From positions 1 to 59,529 of the forward strand of contig QEVJ01000064.1 of NCBI GenBank assembly GCA_003576845.1: a stretch of DNA of 59,529 nucleotides, given 5' to 3'. The notes under the pieces are model-generated. The model did not search any database, was not told where the DNA came from, and was given only the letters and a program-made list of their open reading frames with translations. Position 1 is the first letter of the stretch, and the number at the start of each line of letters is the position of its first letter. Source of the stretch: Planctomycetota bacterium (GTDB lineage Bacteria; Planctomycetota; Planctomycetia; Pirellulales; PLA5). Made by a program: the position numbers and the translations under genes. Positions 34,097 to 40,125 of the stretch are shown here, one piece after another.

Positions 34097-36316
34097 ATGA
34101 CGACGTCAATCTGGCGGGTCTGCCGTGCCGTGAAGGCTGCGGGCTGGTGCGGCATCGTGGCCGCGATTCTTTCGACAACGAATGCCAGGGCCGATTTGAC
34201 GGTTCTGCGCGACTATCAAGGCATTGTGCCTCCGGCCGACATGGTCTACGGCGGCAACTCGGGCACCTCTAGCCCAGTGATCGAACCCGGCACCGATCCG
34301 TCAATCGGCAAATACGTCGTCTCGGCGCTCGGACAGGACTTGTGGGAGCGCGCGGACGCGGGTTCCTTCCTTCACGATGCCGATCCCGTGACCGGTGACT
34401 TCTCGGCTATTGTCCGCGTCTCGTCGATCGTGAACCCGGGCGGCGGCACGCCGGCCCAATGGGGTCGCGCGGGTCTGATGGTGCGGGCCGATCCCGCAGC
34501 CGATCACTCGCCAAACTTTGCGATCGTGCGCCGCACGTCCGATGGCGGTGAATTCTTGGAGTCGACGGTGACCCAGAACCGCGACGCTTTCGGCGCCGGT
34601 TCGGGCGAACCGTTCGGTTTCGGTGGTTCGCAGGACGACGGCGGATTCAATAACACCACGCCGCAGTGGCTCAGCATCGGTCGTACCGGCGGCCAATTTT
34701 ATGCCGCGTTCGCCGCCGATGTCGGCGGCGCCCCGGGGTCGTGGAATCGCGCCAATCCGTTTGGCGTCGTGCCGGCCTTGTCGGGAGACATCTACCTCGG
34801 CTTGGCCACGCAAGGCCGCAAGGATCAAGGCAAGCGTCAGTTGGCGACCTATGAAAACTTCACCCGCGTCGATGAATTTCTCCCCGAATTCTTCCAAGCG
34901 GATCCGCGCGGCGGGAATTTGCTTCCGGCCGCCCCGCTGCCTGGAATTGGCCCCGCAAGTATGATGTGGGGCATTCGCGAAGTACGCGACATCGGCGGCG
35001 CCGCGAACGTCGGCGAAGCAGCTTCGAAGATCGCCGGTGGAACGGGCACGATTTTCGAGGGCCTGAGCCAGTACGTCAACCATACCGACCCGACGACCAA
35101 CCCGTCGGCCGGTAAATTCGGCAATGACGCACCGTTCATTTCGGATGCGCACACCGGCAACACCGACGGACCCGTACCGCCGTACAACGCCGCCGATCCG
35201 GAAGACGACCAGGACGTTCTCATGGTCGGTCACGCCCGCATTCGCGTCACACCGGCGCAAGCAGGTATTTGGAGCTTCGGCGTCCACACCGACGACGGCT
35301 TCGCGATGAGAATTCGCGATTCCGCTGGCAATCTGATGCCGTGGGGTATGACCGATGGGGCCGGCGGCGTGTATGGCGCCGATCGTTCGGAACTCTCGTT
35401 CCCGGATCCGACCGGCGACAGCAACACCCGCGGAACCATGAACCTGCCCGCCGGTAACTACGACGTCGAGTTCGTGTCCTACGAAAACGCCGGCGGCGCC
35501 AATTGGGAGGTGTACCACGCTCAAGGCGTCGTGCTGAACGACGGTGCTTCGAACTGGCGATTGCTCGGCGCGAAGCCCGATCCCGCGAAGCAATACTTCA
35601 AGCCGACGATGGCTCCTCTCGACGATCAGGGCAACCATTTCGACATCACGGTCGTGGATAGCACGCCGGACAACACGCCGGCGCATTCGGTTGCCCAAGC
35701 GCGAAGCATCCTCGATAATCCGGGCGCCAATCCGGTGTTCCAGGGCCTCGCGCCGGTGATCAACCACAAGGATCCTGAAGCCGGCGTGTGCTGCGGCGGT
35801 CTCGACAACGGCGACCTGGCCTGGCCCGGTTTGGCCGACGGCGTGGACAACGAAGACTACGCCACGCGATCGCTCGGCGTGCTGCAAATGCCGGCCGACG
35901 GCTACGTCCGGTTCCATATCCAAAGCGACGATGGCTTCGGGCTGCACATCGACGATGCCCAGTTCAGCATCCTTTCGGCGGCCGGCGGCCCGACGTACCT
36001 CGCCGACGCCGGCACGAGCGTGAACGCCGACTACGGCACCGGCAACACCAACACGGTGCTCGAAGCGTTTATTCCCGCGGGCGAACATTTCATGGAGTTC
36101 ATCCATTGGGATGGCTGCTGCGGTTCGTACGCCGAGGTCTACGTCGGCGGTCTCGCCGGCCAGGACGGCATGTTGCTCGGCTCGTTCAACGATCCGATCG
36201 ACCTCGGCATCATCGCCGGCCCCCAAGTGCTCGCCCTGGTTCCGGAACCGTCGAGCTACGTGCTGGCGGCGCTCGGTTTCGCCGGCATCGTCGCCCTGCG
36301 GCGCCGCCGTAAGTAG
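34097..36316 (+). CDS. PEP-CTERM exported protein with PA14-like modules
   Basis: This 739-residue exported protein has a signal peptide (AAGWCGIVAAILSTTNARA, about 14-32) and the sorting tail VPEPSSYVLAALGFAGIVAL followed by RRRRK. It contains two PA14-like modules recognisable by 'GIWSFGVHTDDGFAMRI' (about 391-407) and 'YVRFHIQSDDGFGLHI' (about 610-625), each followed by a GxHxMEF/GNYDVEF-type strand (YDVEFVSYENAGG, HFMEFIHWDGCCG). PA14 modules bind carbohydrate. A laminin-G/concanavalin-like N-terminal domain (about 35-265) precedes them. GAGGT eight bases upstream supports the ATG. A terminator follows. It was probably exported and processed by an exosortase not in this window. Confidence 0.85.
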   Translation: MTTSIWRVCRAVKAAGWCGIVAAILSTTNARADLTVLRDYQGIVPPADMVYGGNSGTSSPVIEPGTDPSIGKYVVSALGQDLWERADAGSFLHDADPVTGDFSAIVRVSSIVNPGGGTPAQWGRAGLMVRADPAADHSPNFAIVRRTSDGGEFLESTVTQNRDAFGAGSGEPFGFGGSQDDGGFNNTTPQWLSIGRTGGQFYAAFAADVGGAPGSWNRANPFGVVPALSGDIYLGLATQGRKDQGKRQLATYENFTRVDEFLPEFFQADPRGGNLLPAAPLPGIGPASMMWGIREVRDIGGAANVGEAASKIAGGTGTIFEGLSQYVNHTDPTTNPSAGKFGNDAPFISDAHTGNTDGPVPPYNAADPEDDQDVLMVGHARIRVTPAQAGIWSFGVHTDDGFAMRIRDSAGNLMPWGMTDGAGGVYGADRSELSFPDPTGDSNTRGTMNLPAGNYDVEFVSYENAGGANWEVYHAQGVVLNDGASNWRLLGAKPDPAKQYFKPTMAPLDDQGNHFDITVVDSTPDNTPAHSVAQARSILDNPGANPVFQGLAPVINHKDPEAGVCCGGLDNGDLAWPGLADGVDNEDYATRSLGVLQMPADGYVRFHIQSDDGFGLHIDDAQFSILSAAGGPTYLADAGTSVNADYGTGNTNTVLEAFIPAGEHFMEFIHWDGCCGSYAEVYVGGLAGQDGMLLGSFNDPIDLGIIAGPQVLALVPEPSSYVLAALGFAGIVALRRRRK

Positions 36317-36410: not shown

Positions 36411-38495
36411 TCAATTCCCCCAAGCCCACCGCAACAGATTCCGCGCGTCGACGTACCGCGCGTCGTTCGACGTGCTGCCCAAGATCACGGCGATCAGCTC
36501 GCGGTCGCCGCGGCGGGCGAAGGCGACCAGGCACGCTCCCGCCGCCATCGTCGTGCCCGTCTTCACGCCGCCGTAGCCTTCGATCGAGAGCAACCGGTTC
36601 GTGTTTCGCCAGACGACGTTGCGGCGATAACCCGAGGCGTGCGTCACGGTACAGCCGCGCTGATAGGTCGTGACGTAATCGCGAAACCGCGGCACGGCCA
36701 GGGCCGCATGCGCGAGCCGCACCAAATCCCCAGCGCTCGACCGATGCCCTTCCGCGGTCAAGCCGTGTGGATTCTCGAAGTGCGAGTGTGTCATGCCGAG
36801 CGCGGCAGCCTCGCGGTTCATTTCCGCAACGAAGCGAGCGACCGCGTCGATCGGTTTGTCGTTTGTGTCGCCACTTGCACCACCGGTCTTATTGTCGCGA
36901 TCCGGCGGCGCAAGCCGATCGCCGAAGTGCTCTGCCAGGGCGACGGCCGCGTCGTTTCCGCTCGGCAACATCAAGCCATATATCAGCTCGCGAACCGGCA
37001 ACGATTCGCCCGCGCGAATGTCGGCCGTGGAACCCGGCGTTTCGTCGGCCCGCTGCGAGAACGTCACGGTCTCGTCGAGCACGCTCGCATTGGCGGCAGC
37101 CAGTTTGAGCACGATGTAGGCGGTCATGATCTTGGTCGTGCTGGCGATGTCCCGCGGCTTTTCGTCGTCCGCGCCCCACAGCACCTTGCCCGAAGCTGCG
37201 TCGCCAATCGCCCACGCCGCGGCGGTCACAAGTGGCGGACCGTCGAGCGCCGTTTCCGCGATCCGCTTGCGTCTAGCCGCGTTTACGACCTCGGGATCGG
37301 GCACAGGCGCATCGCCGGTCGCAATCGGGCCGAGCGCCGACCAGGTCTTCTCATCGACCACGCCCGTCGCCGCGCGTTCATGCTTCCTTTGCAGTGCGAG
37401 CACCGCCGCCTCCGTCGCCGGGCCGAACTCGCCGTCGATCGCCAACTCCGGCGAGGGCGACAGCCGCGCGTTGAGTGTCCGCTGCAAGTCGGCGACCAGC
37501 GGGCCGCTCGCCCCGCGCTTGAGCGCCGCGTCGCCGGCCGCCGGACCGCGCTCGTGGTTCGCCGACTCCGGGTTGAAGTAGTCGTAAGCCGCGCGGGCAA
37601 TCTTCGCCCCCAGCACCTTCGCCGCGTTGTCGTCGGTCCACCGCTGGTCGGAATTCTCCGCGGTGAGCACGCAGATCGCAATCGGCCCTGCCCGCGACTC
37701 AATGACTCCGGCATCCGTGCGAATCGCGCTCACCGCCCCGGTCTTGTGGGCAACCTTCACGCCGTCGGGCAGCAGCGCGGGCAGCATCGTCCGATCGTCG
37801 CAAGCCCGCAAGTGATCCAGCATCGCTTCGCAAGCGGCCGCCGATACGACCTGCTTCCCGTGAATCTTCGCCAGCAGACCAACCATCTCATTGGACGTCG
37901 TGCTGCCCAGCCCGAACTTCTTGCTCCGCTCGGGAAACGCGCTCGTCTCGCGGCGAAACACCTTGGCGTGAATCTTCGTGTTCGGAAACCCGAGCTTCTC
38001 CATCGAATCGGCCGTCGACTTGAGGCCGATCTGGTCGAGTACCAGGTTCGTCGCCGTGTTGTCGCTATAGACCATCATCAGCCGCACCGCATCCCGCAGC
38101 GACAGCGACATCCCGGCGGAAAAATGCGGCGTCAAAATACCCGAACCGGGCACTTTATCGTTCTCGGCAAGCGTGATCGACTTCGCCAGATCGACTTTCT
38201 TTTCCTCCGCCTGGCGATAGGTTTCGACCATCACGGCCAGCTTGATAAGACTCGCCGTCGGCATCGGCTCGTCGCCGCGATAGGCGAACGCGGCGTCCTT
38301 GTCGTCGCGCGATAGATGCTTGATCGCGACCGCGACGGTGCCCTTATGCCCCTTGATGAGCGGCTCGATGCGTTCGGCGAGCGACTGGGCATGCACCGCC
38401 TGACTCAAGACGATCCAGCAAATCACCGCCGCAAAAGCACGAACGACCGCGCCATTCCGCCCGCGGATTCTTCCGAGAAACAAACCTTCGGCCAT
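36411..38495 (-). CDS. Class A beta-lactamase-like / peptidoglycan-binding / S11 D,D-carboxypeptidase fusion
   Basis: I choose the ATG at 38495 (GGAG seven bases upstream); it starts a signal peptide (VVRAFAAVICWIVLSQAVHA). The longer frame adds 29 unlikely residues. Of 694 residues, about 35-305 resemble class A beta-lactamase: nucleophile TASLIK (near 82), SDN (near 144), a RRETS segment where the omega-loop Glu would lie, and HKTG (near 250). A peptidoglycan-binding domain follows (about 320-390, LQRTLNARL, DGEFGPATEAAVLALQ). Then comes a D-alanyl-D-alanine carboxypeptidase of the DacA/S11 type: STTKIM (near 452), SGN (near 512), KTGTT (near 643). It acts in the periplasm on cell-wall muropeptides. 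Antibiotic hydrolysis by the first domain is possible but unproven. Confidence 0.85.
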   Translation of the reverse strand: MAEGLFLGRIRGRNGAVVRAFAAVICWIVLSQAVHAQSLAERIEPLIKGHKGTVAVAIKHLSRDDKDAAFAYRGDEPMPTASLIKLAVMVETYRQAEEKKVDLAKSITLAENDKVPGSGILTPHFSAGMSLSLRDAVRLMMVYSDNTATNLVLDQIGLKSTADSMEKLGFPNTKIHAKVFRRETSAFPERSKKFGLGSTTSNEMVGLLAKIHGKQVVSAAACEAMLDHLRACDDRTMLPALLPDGVKVAHKTGAVSAIRTDAGVIESRAGPIAICVLTAENSDQRWTDDNAAKVLGAKIARAAYDYFNPESANHERGPAAGDAALKRGASGPLVADLQRTLNARLSPSPELAIDGEFGPATEAAVLALQRKHERAATGVVDEKTWSALGPIATGDAPVPDPEVVNAARRKRIAETALDGPPLVTAAAWAIGDAASGKVLWGADDEKPRDIASTTKIMTAYIVLKLAAANASVLDETVTFSQRADETPGSTADIRAGESLPVRELIYGLMLPSGNDAAVALAEHFGDRLAPPDRDNKTGGASGDTNDKPIDAVARFVAEMNREAAALGMTHSHFENPHGLTAEGHRSSAGDLVRLAHAALAVPRFRDYVTTYQRGCTVTHASGYRRNVVWRNTNRLLSIEGYGGVKTGTTMAAGACLVAFARRGDRELIAVILGSTSNDARYVDARNLLRWAWGN

Positions 38496-38661: not shown

Positions 38662-40125
38662 CTAAGATACTTCGCCCGAGCCGCGCGCATAAGCGAGAAA
38701 CGCCGCGGCAACCAAAGTCGCCACGACGCCGAACGTGGTCGGATACGCCGGCAGGCCCAAATCGCGCGCCAGCTCGACCGTTCCGCCCACGAGCGGCGAC
38801 CCGATGAGCGTCCCCACGTCCATCGACGCCAGCATCAGCGTCGTGGCCAGCCCGCGGTGCCGGTCGGGAAACGCCATCGCCCCGCCCGCCATCAGCGTCG
38901 GAAACAACAACGCGTGCGAGAACCCGGCCAACACGGCCGGCAACGCCAGCATTGCCTCGCGATCCACCGCCAGATACGACAGCGCGCTCGCCGCCCCGAG
39001 CGCCAAGCCCGTGAGGATCACCGGGCGAATGCCGAAGTCGGCCGACATCCGCCGCGTCGCGAGCCGGGCAATGAACGCCGTTGGCGTGTAGACGAAGAAG
39101 AACAATTGCATTTCGCCGATGCCCAGGTCGTGCGTGTACGCCCGCAGAAACGTCGACGGGAGCGTGATGAGCACACCCATCGCAAAGCCCACGGCGAGTA
39201 GCGCCCCGGGATGATAGCGTCGCAACAGCCAGAACGTCGGCGGGCGGCGGCGCGGCTCGGGCGCAGCGGACCCGCGCGTCGCCCAGGCCGCGGCGACGAG
39301 CGCGAACATGCCCAGCCCCGCCGACAGAAAGAACATGTTGTGCATCGCCACGGTCCGCTCGGCGAGCGAAGCCGCGACCAGGTCGCCCGCCAGCCAATCG
39401 CCGAGCGCCGGTCCGATCGCCATGCCCAAGAAGCCCGACGTGCCGAGCGTGCCCAGCACTTCGGCCATCCGCGGCACGGGAATCGTGTGCGAAATGAACG
39501 TGATCGACGAACCGAACACGCCGGCCACCGCGATGCAGTACAGGATGCGGAGCACGTACACGGTCGGCGTGTCGATCGTAGTGACCCACACGTGCGCGGC
39601 GACGACGGCGGCGAACAACGCTTGCGACGCCAGCCACACCCGCCGCGGACCGAGTCGGTCGATGCCGGCCCCAAGCCACCACCGCATCGCCAGGCTGCCC
39701 GTCATTCCCACGCCGACGATCCACCCGAGCTTCTTCTCGCCGCCGCCGAACAAATGAACGAAATCGGCATAGCGGTACAAGATCGCCGCCGCGGCGGTCA
39801 GCGCCGCGTTCGACAGATAACAGAGCCAGAATGTCTTGCCGTATGCCGACGGCTCGGCAAGCGCGGGCGGAGCTTCGATCGCTCGCGGCGACGCGAACGG
39901 ATTTGCGGCGGCTAATTCGGCCGGCGCGATCTCGGCGGGAGGAACTTCGGTGGCGACGGATTCGAGGCGGCGGATCATCGAGACGGCGGAAGCGGCGGGC
40001 GGCACGACCGGCGCGATTTCGAGCGGCGGGGCGAACGGGGCGGGTGATGCGGCTATTATAGCGCCCGCCGCCGAATCACCGAGTCCGATTGCGCCATTTT
40101 CGCCCCTGCCAGCAGTTCCCACCAC
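38662..40125 (-). CDS. Major facilitator superfamily transporter
   Basis: This 487-residue membrane protein has about 12 hydrophobic helices from residue 97 onward (FWLCYLSNAALTAAAAILYR, GWIVGVGMTGSLAMRWWLGA and so on). The MFS loop 2-3 motif appears as GAGIDRLGPRRVWL, and loop 8-9 as RRMSADFGIRP. The GTG at 40125 is supported by GGAGGA five bases upstream, so the Pro/Ala-rich 95-residue cytoplasmic N-terminus appears genuine. It is unusual for this family. Substrate unknown. It lies upstream of the carboxypeptidase fusion on the same strand (167-bp gap) and divergent from the glycosyltransferase gene. Confidence 0.85.
   Translation of the reverse strand: MVGTAGRGENGAIGLGDSAAGAIIAASPAPFAPPLEIAPVVPPAASAVSMIRRLESVATEVPPAEIAPAELAAANPFASPRAIEAPPALAEPSAYGKTFWLCYLSNAALTAAAAILYRYADFVHLFGGGEKKLGWIVGVGMTGSLAMRWWLGAGIDRLGPRRVWLASQALFAAVVAAHVWVTTIDTPTVYVLRILYCIAVAGVFGSSITFISHTIPVPRMAEVLGTLGTSGFLGMAIGPALGDWLAGDLVAASLAERTVAMHNMFFLSAGLGMFALVAAAWATRGSAAPEPRRRPPTFWLLRRYHPGALLAVGFAMGVLITLPSTFLRAYTHDLGIGEMQLFFFVYTPTAFIARLATRRMSADFGIRPVILTGLALGAASALSYLAVDREAMLALPAVLAGFSHALLFPTLMAGGAMAFPDRHRGLATTLMLASMDVGTLIGSPLVGGTVELARDLGLPAYPTTFGVVATLVAAAFLAYARGSGEVS

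What the first reader, a model, noticed from the sequence alone, without database searches (positions are those of the whole stretch)
36411..38495. Beta-lactamase fold, peptidoglycan-binding and D,D-carboxypeptidase in one exported protein
Two different penicillin-recognising serine enzymes (SxxK/SDN/KTG twice) flank a wall-binding domain. This arrangement could couple muropeptide trimming with self-protection or sensing of beta-lactams in a phylum long thought to lack peptidoglycan.
Basis: partly seen in the sequence, partly recalled or inferred. Interest (0 to 1): 0.55.

Follow-up and report, generated by a model that had tools for sequence, protein, structure and literature searches.

The report
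Two-headed cell-wall-trimming enzyme in planctomycetes
One exported planctomycete protein carries two different wall-trimming enzymes around a wall-binding domain, and it is kept even in species whose genomes seem unable to build a wall, which suggests that it may help to digest the walls of other bacteria.

Summary
The minus-strand gene 36411-38495 encodes 694 aa: probable signal peptide, class-A-beta-lactamase-fold domain, PG_binding_1 and an S11 D,D-peptidase. Both acylation sites are intact and their main residues invariant in 72 relatives; the second middle motif is SGN, not SDN. The first domain is probably not a beta-lactamase: no column of its omega loop is an invariant Glu and it misses the class A cut-off, though which residue stands at position 166 is uncertain. 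I read the protein as two wall-tethered D,D-peptidases. The genome (99% complete) shows no PBP transpeptidase, GT51, MraY, Mur ligase, nor a Ddl over cut-off. At least 43 of 248 class genomes carry the full fusion; 23 of these lack PBPs and MraY. In one family all 11 loci examined have a D-Glu-salvage-type gene just upstream, and elsewhere the protein is fused to an M19 dipeptidase. Best reading: peptidoglycan digestion, in PBP-less lineages probably of foreign walls. Nothing was tested at the bench. These salvage genes are not beside the window's copy.

The parts
36411..38495 (-). gene for the 694-aa tandem D,D-peptidase protein, stop codon included
   Evidence: translate, Pfam, 72 aligned full-length sequences, the window's included
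38388..38495 (-). probable signal peptide, residues 1-36
   Evidence: judged by eye; low pLDDT at 1-11 and a helix at 15-32 in the model
37662..38324 (-). class-A-beta-lactamase-fold domain (PF13354), residues 58-278
   Evidence: 220.8 bits; structural matches LRA-5 Z 36.3, 4ewf Z 36.1, PBP-A Z 34.5
38241..38252 (-). SLIK, catalytic Ser82 and Lys85
   Evidence: S and K 72 of 72
38058..38066 (-). SDN 144-146
   Evidence: S and N 72 of 72, D 71 of 72
37959..37961 (-). Val179, likely equivalent of Glu166 of class A beta-lactamases judged by LRA-5 (Val166)
   Evidence: LRA-5 in three alignments and wild-type PBP-A in one; V 70, L 2 of 72; other PBP-A alignments give other places
37947..37949 (-). 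Glu183, acidic in 65 of 72, a rival candidate for a general base
   Evidence: D 38, E 27, S 4, G 2, T 1
37929..37931 (-). Glu189, where MAFFT puts PBP-A Leu158; second rival candidate
   Evidence: E 50, D 10, others 12 of 72; alignment
37737..37745 (-). KTG 251-253
   Evidence: K and G 72 of 72; middle residue T 58, S 8, others 6
37332..37508 (-). PG_binding_1 domain, residues 330-388
   Evidence: 47.9 bits, cut-off 23
36414..37238 (-). Peptidase S11 domain, residues 420-694
   Evidence: 185.6 bits; K15 D,D-transpeptidase Z 36.2, 36% identity
37131..37142 (-). STTK, catalytic Ser452 and Lys455
   Evidence: S and K 72 of 72
36954..36962 (-). SGN 512-514
   Evidence: 72 of 72
36555..36563 (-). 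KTG 645-647
   Evidence: 72 of 72
38662..40125 (-). neighbouring MFS transporter, same strand, upstream; generic; not shown to belong to the system
   Evidence: MFS_1 97.1 bits; no AmpG model among its 7 NCBIfam matches

Best explanation
It is an exported, wall-tethered double D,D-peptidase. After signal-peptide cleavage the PG_binding_1 domain holds the protein on peptidoglycan. Two serine active sites of different families then attack D-Ala-D-Ala ends and possibly D,D-cross-links: an N-terminal domain with the class A beta-lactamase fold but probably no Glu166 (working like cyanobacterial PBP-A), and a C-terminal S11 (K15/PBP5-like) domain. In lineages that keep peptidoglycan synthesis it would trim or recycle their own wall. 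In lineages without that pathway, the window's genome included, it most likely works at the front of a salvage route that digests peptidoglycan of other bacteria. Shown here: architecture, intact acylation residues, no invariant omega-loop Glu in the family, absence of several synthesis families, and the salvage-type neighbourhood in one family. Inferred: the chemistry, the substrate, and that the window's copy does the same work without those neighbours.
For: PF13354 and PF00768 in 72 of 72, PF01471 in 70 of 72; acylation residues invariant apart from D145 (71 of 72), T252 (58) and T453 (65). No omega-loop column is an invariant Glu (best E189, 50 of 72). With the family profile, 4ewf (149.7 bits), PBP-A (118.9) and LRA-5 (109.8) outscore the other beta-lactamase chains listed, except an engineered LRA-5 variant at 108.0 (best 60 of 406 shown); LRA-5 and PBP-A lack Glu166 (PMC12777564; PMC11189452), and PBP-A is a D,D-carboxypeptidase and endopeptidase. 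4ewf is titled beta-lactamase; I know of no activity data for it. C domain best matches K15 and PBP5-type enzymes. Own genome: no PF00905, no PF00912, no MraY, no Ddl over cut-off; its two Mur_ligase_M matches are cyanophycin synthetase and FolC. 23 of 43 full-length carriers lack PBP and MraY over cut-off. In family f7 a DUF1611/DgcN-like gene stands just upstream in 11 of 11 loci and an epimerase in 10; within the 18-kb loci LdcA-like in 9, M14 in 8, AmpG- and NagZ-like in 3 of 11; 0 of 9 loci from three other families has any of these. M19 dipeptidase downstream on the same strand in 28 of 101 loci, in one reading frame in 4.
Against: 20 of 43 full-length carriers have PBPs, so foreign walls cannot be the only substrate in the class. 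Jeske et al. report peptidoglycan sugars and DAP in Rhodopirellula baltica and Gemmata obscuriglobus and state that all analysed species have essential synthesis genes (PMC4432640); murB, murE and mraY are reported for an Isosphaeraceae genome (PMC5352709). MurA, MurB, MurG, SEDS proteins and L,D-transpeptidases were not searched. The Ddl cut-off is a poor marker: only 13 of 57 relatives pass it, while 20 have PBPs. Neighbour names are family-level: the AmpG, DgcN, DgcA, NagZ, LdcA and MpaA models were all below their NCBIfam cut-offs. The position of Glu166 is uncertain: PBP-A Leu158 falls on Val179, Phe187 or Glu189 by method, and residue 183 is acidic in 65 of 72. No activity was measured.
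Confidence: 0.58

Rival explanations
1. Ordinary wall maintenance: the protein is a low-molecular-mass PBP that trims the cell's own, thin or divergent peptidoglycan, in PBP-less planctomycetes too.
For: 20 of 43 full-length carriers have PBPs and 19 have MraY over cut-off. Peptidoglycan was reported in R. baltica and G. obscuriglobus (PMC4432640).
Against: The window's genome shows no PBP transpeptidase, GT51, MraY or MurC-F, and no Ddl over cut-off; in family f7 the gene sits among salvage-type genes.
Confidence: 0.25
2. Self-protection: the N domain is a working class A beta-lactamase that shields the S11 domain.
For: Fold and SxxK/SDN/KTG present. Glu183 and Glu189 lie on the omega loop of this protein, and MAFFT puts the Glu166 place of PBP-A on Glu189. 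Jeske et al. found beta-lactamase homologues in all selected planctomycete genomes (PMC4432640).
Against: No omega-loop column is an invariant Glu in 72 sequences; LRA-5 alignments put Val179 at 166; NF033103 122.9 bits against 200; LRA-5, lacking Glu166, has biologically insignificant activity (PMC12777564).
Confidence: 0.08
3. Beta-lactam trap or sensor: the N domain is acylated for good and signals or soaks up drug.
For: Intact acylation residues with no invariant deacylating Glu.
Against: No signalling or DNA-binding partner domain; none of the 8 neighbour types identified is a regulator (the other neighbour groups were not identified).
Confidence: 0.03
4. Stand-in transpeptidase: in PBP-less cells the K15-like S11 domain cross-links peptidoglycan in place of lost PBPs.
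For: The best structural match of the C domain is the K15 D,D-transpeptidase, Z 36.2, 36% identity; 23 carriers have no PF00905.
Against: The same 23 genomes lack MraY over cut-off and the own genome lacks the Mur ligases, so there would be no precursor to cross-link.
Confidence: 0.05

Closest known systems
PBP-A of Thermosynechococcus elongatus (PDB 2j7v)
   Same: Class A beta-lactamase fold; SxxK, SDN, KTG; Z 34.5, 25% identity; probably also no Glu166
   Different: Single domain; shorter omega loop; its Glu96, proposed to select amidated stems (PMC11189452, Discussion read), falls on Gly117 here (G 71 of 72); the authors call the family exclusively cyanobacterial
LRA-5 (PDB 8eo5), soil metagenome
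   Same: Best structural match of the N domain, Z 36.3; its Val166 aligns with Val179
   Different: Single domain; studied as a beta-lactamase precursor (PMC12777564, passages)
Streptomyces K15 D,D-transpeptidase and PBP5/PBP6/DacB (S11)
   Same: S11 fold, Z 33-36, 31-38% identity in the rows looked at; STTK, SGN, KTG here
   Different: Here joined behind another serine peptidase and PG_binding_1; PBP5's C-terminal domain is not among the Pfam matches
E. coli murQ operon with PBP4B
   Same: A penicillin-binding protein kept in a MurNAc-recycling operon (PMC5061867, passage read)
   Different: Different partner genes; the host makes peptidoglycan
Natural fusion beta-lactamase LRA-13 (recalled, no call)
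   Same: Two active-site-serine domains in one chain
   Different: As recalled, both halves are beta-lactamases (classes C and D), with no wall-binding domain

Membership tests
Class A beta-lactamase | Class A fold with SxxK, SDN, KTG | tested here: met
Class A beta-lactamase | A Glu kept on the omega loop across the family | tested here: not met
   Columns 176-200 in 72 sequences: most frequent Glu is E189, 50 of 72; E183 27 of 72
Class A beta-lactamase | Identity of this protein's own residue at position 166 | tested here: inconclusive
   Val179 against LRA-5 in phmmer, hmmsearch and MAFFT and against wild-type PBP-A in hmmsearch; Phe187 against wild-type PBP-A in phmmer; Glu189 in MAFFT and with the PBP-A mutant chain.
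Class A beta-lactamase | NCBIfam NF033103 cut-off (200 bits) | tested here: not met
   122.9 bits
Class A beta-lactamase | Hydrolysis of beta-lactams | not testable with these tools
   needs enzyme assays
PBP-A | Class A fold lacking Glu166 | tested here: inconclusive
   fold met; position 166 uncertain as above
[quoted passage not shown]
   Gly117 in 71 of 72, Asp in 1; same register in phmmer, hmmsearch and MAFFT
PBP-A | Cyanobacterial family | tested here: not met
   79 of the 80 loci kept bear planctomycete names (genera judged from my own knowledge), one only 'bacterium'; so 'works like', not 'is a'
PBP-A | D,D-carboxypeptidase/endopeptidase activity | not testable with these tools
   needs peptide assays
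Peptidase S11 | PF00768 cut-off and STTK/SGN/KTG | tested here: met
   185.6 bits against 27.6; motif residues 72 of 72 except T453, 65 of 72
PG_binding_1 | PF01471 cut-off | tested here: met
   47.9 bits against 23
Peptidoglycan salvage locus | Neighbours of the AmpG/NagZ/LdcA/DgcN/epimerase kinds beside the window's copy | tested here: not met
   No tblastn match of seven neighbour types in the 59.5-kb window; met in 11 of 11 family f7 loci for at least DUF1611

The most novel reading that the evidence does not exclude
Peptidoglycan as food for bacteria that make none: planctomycete lineages that lost peptidoglycan synthesis kept, and in places extended to a four-part enzyme with an M19 dipeptidase, a wall-tethered tandem D,D-peptidase as the entry step of a route that digests the walls of other bacteria.
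Probability: 0.42. Interest if true: 0.75.

Novelty: new variant of a known kind. Interest (0 to 1): 0.6.

Why it matters
Whether and how planctomycetes make peptidoglycan has been argued for decades. A conserved exported peptidase with two intact penicillin-recognising sites, in genomes where PBPs, MraY and Mur ligases are not found, gives a direct test: either these cells hold a hidden peptidoglycan, or they consume that of others. It also warns that 'class A beta-lactamase' hits in planctomycetes, a suggested cause of their beta-lactam resistance, may be peptidases without the deacylating glutamate.

Tried and rejected
I first thought the fusion and PBPs excluded each other: among 57 relatives none of the 7 full-length carriers had PF00905, which 20 of 57 have. 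The class sample refuted this: 20 of 43 carriers have PBPs, all in family f21; carriers are 20 of 84 PBP-positive and 23 of 164 PBP-negative genomes (Fisher p 0.075). Recent internal duplication was rejected: the two halves share no significant similarity (best E 0.11). The MFS gene upstream was considered as AmpG and rejected: generic MFS_1, no AmpG model matched. Comparing domain distances gave weak correlations (N against C rho 0.27, 0 of 999 permutations as high; PGB against C 0.36, 0 of 999; N against PGB 0.12, 33 of 999), so it says little. The weak third PF13354 match in the genome (C77) is a class C-like PF00144 protein, so this protein is not the genome's only penicillin-recognising protein; PF00144 was not counted genome-wide. 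AGGAGG in the window gave no more than chance. Two paper searches, one on planctomycetes lacking PBPs and one on this architecture, found 0 papers; the library is open-access only. Families absent from the list are not excluded. L018-L097 and L151-L170 overlap in part (equal contig lengths, e.g. L083 and L159), so the counts are not independent.

Full report
What is there. On the minus strand, 38495 to 36411, one open frame of 694 codons encodes a probable signal peptide, a Beta-lactamase2 domain, PG_binding_1 and a Peptidase_S11 domain, each of the three domains over its Pfam cut-off. The AF2 model, made from 72 aligned sequences, has mean pLDDT 91.7 and pTM 0.78. VIA-align places residues 37-310 on LRA-5 (Z 36.3, rmsd 1.9, 259 aligned), 36-313 on 4ewf (Z 36.1) and 37-311 on PBP-A (Z 34.5), and residues 420-694 on the Streptomyces K15 D,D-transpeptidase (Z 36.2, rmsd 1.6, 252 aligned, 36% identity).

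It is a conserved protein, not an accident. Of 57 relatives searched, 12 have some match and 7 the full-length protein (in one of them, G052, the match comes in two pieces of one frame). A scan of named genomes gave 460 relatives, of which the best 80 were kept; 79 of these 80 bear planctomycete names (genera judged from my own knowledge) and one says only 'bacterium'. I aligned 72 sequences: the window's, 6 and 65 of the 80. All 72 have PF13354 and PF00768, and 70 have PF01471. In a phylum sample of 294 genomes, 8 full-length matches appear, all in the window's own class; in other classes no match spans both ends, though some frames there join PG_binding_1 and S11 pieces (e.g. G060, G104).

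Both acylation sites look intact. In 72 sequences S82, K85, S144, N146, K251 and G253 of the first domain and S452, K455, S512, G513, N514, K645, T646 and G647 of the second never vary; D145 is D in 71 and E in 1, T252 is T in 58 and S in 8, T453 is T in 65.

The first domain is probably not a beta-lactamase. Class A beta-lactamases deacylate through Glu166. Over columns 176-200 no position is an invariant Glu: E189 is E in 50 of 72, residue 183 is D in 38 and E in 27. Which residue stands at 166 is uncertain. In alignments to LRA-5, whose Val166 is documented (PMC12777564, passages), Val179 (V 70, L 2 of 72) lies on that valine in phmmer, hmmsearch and MAFFT. PBP-A has a shorter loop; its Leu158, the place structurally aligned with Glu166 by its authors' account (PMC11189452; the residue number is from the PDB title), falls on Val179 in hmmsearch, on Phe187 in phmmer and on Glu189 in MAFFT and with the mutant chain. 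The class A model of NCBIfam scores 122.9 against a cut-off of 200. With the family profile, 4ewf (149.7 bits), PBP-A (118.9) and LRA-5 (109.8) outscore the other beta-lactamase chains among the 60 shown of 406, save an engineered LRA-5 variant (108.0); the next are 4hes (89.2, 'class A-like') and 6v4w (85.8).

Own genome. The window lies in a 7.05-Mb genome, 99% complete, in 289 contigs. It has no PF00905, no PF00912, no MraY match and no Ddl over cut-off (best 115.6 bits against 245.65). The Ddl result is weak: only 13 of 57 relatives pass that cut-off, while 20 have PBPs. Its only two Mur_ligase_M matches are cyanophycin synthetase (1149.4 bits) and FolC (348.8 bits), both over cut-off. MurA, MurB, MurG, SEDS proteins and L,D-transpeptidases were not searched. 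This protein is its only S11 and only strong PF13354. The genome also has a CHAP plus PG_binding_1 protein and a class C-like PF00144 protein. So it carries enzymes against peptidoglycan but, by these models, not the main ones that build it.

Class-wide. Of 248 genomes, 84 have PF00905 and 80 have MraY over cut-off (206 have some weaker match); the 80 are all among the 84. At least 43 have the full-length fusion (list made). Of the 43, 20 have PBPs, all in family f21; 23 have neither PBP nor MraY over cut-off, in families f7 (11), f15 (7), f104 (4) and f1, the window's own (1). Elsewhere the two halves occur as separate genes (e.g. G426). Published work says that synthesis genes are only partly detected in planctomycetes (PMC12910023, passage; PMC5352709, passage, where murB, murE and mraY are reported for an Isosphaeraceae genome), yet peptidoglycan was detected in four strains, R. 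baltica included (PMC5147048, passages; PMC4432640). A metagenome study names Planctomycetia among classes that may be important for D-amino acid recycling, after examining ddl and murD (PMC12363236, passage).

Neighbours. Among 80 genome-contig loci, 63 have at least 3 kb upstream, and 18 of these carry an enolase-superfamily epimerase, DUF1611, GH3 or AmpG-like gene; Bythopirellula, Adhaeretor, Lacipirellula and Botrimarina are among them. The neighbour families are: epimerase (best model DgcA, 218 of 400 bits), DUF1611 (DgcN 269 of 480), GH3 (NagZ-like 166 of 207), AmpG-like MFS (187.8 of 350), S66 LD-carboxypeptidase (177 of 378) and M14 (MpaA 20.5 of 157). All six are over a Pfam cut-off, but M14 and MFS_1 say little about substrate, and all these NCBIfam names are below cut-off. 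To tie neighbourhood to PBP status I took 20 loci from genomes of known status: in family f7, all 11 without PBP and MraY over cut-off, DUF1611 stands upstream in 11 of 11, the epimerase in 10, LdcA-like in 9, M14 in 8, and AmpG- and NagZ-like in 3 (in one of these on the other strand); none of the 9 loci from f15, f104 and f21 has any of them (one of the 9 is a contig of only 7.8 kb), and neither has the window. In some loci the tandem protein is continued in frame by an M19 dipeptidase (two checked, 397 and 372 bits). By tblastn M19 stands downstream on the same strand in 28 of 101 loci (25 within about 400 bases, 3 about 2 kb away), in one frame in 4, two f15 genomes among the 28, but not in the window. 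DgcN-DgcA turns D-Glu into L-Glu (PMC10845958, passage). A penicillin-binding protein in a muropeptide-recycling operon has a precedent in E. coli, PBP4B beside murQ (PMC5061867, passage).

Mechanism. The likely order is: binding to peptidoglycan, removal of terminal D-Ala and possibly opening of D,D-cross-links by two sites of different specificity, then dipeptide cleavage (M19) and uptake and D-Glu conversion where those genes are present. Every chemical step is inference from family. That PBP-less carriers act on foreign peptidoglycan follows from the missing synthesis genes and is the least certain step.

Verdict. A real, conserved architecture made of known parts, for which my two paper searches found no description (open-access library only): a new variant of a known kind. 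Its context makes it more interesting than the architecture alone.

Noticed in passing
L033:5908-9150, L058:622-3906, L051, L155: The tandem protein is extended in one frame by an M19 dipeptidase, giving a four-module protein (Pfam checked for L033 and L058 only).
   Followed up: yes
G015:C2:678198-678797 (L146): A genome without PBP and without MraY over cut-off keeps a MurE-type ligase over its cut-off (379 bits) as one of only two Mur-ligase matches; the other is FolC.
   Followed up: partly
G000:C163:11718-12356 (L144): Cyanophycin synthetase in the window's genome, one of its two PF08245 matches.
   Followed up: partly
G000:C77:47682-47879 (L148): Exported-looking class C-type (PF00144) serine hydrolase; nearest curated models D-aminopeptidase, PBP4B and AmpH, all below cut-off.
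   Followed up: partly
G000:C203:26036-26254 (L150): CHAP domain with PG_binding_1: a probable peptidoglycan hydrolase in a genome where the main peptidoglycan-synthesis families were not found.
   Followed up: no
window 34097-36316 (+): Large PEP-CTERM protein converging on the gene from the other strand.
   Followed up: no
G005, G023 (L008, L009, L013): Stand-alone N-domain genes of about 300 aa in a family (f5) where both searched genomes lack the fusion; G023 has a Ddl over cut-off but no PF00905.
   Followed up: no
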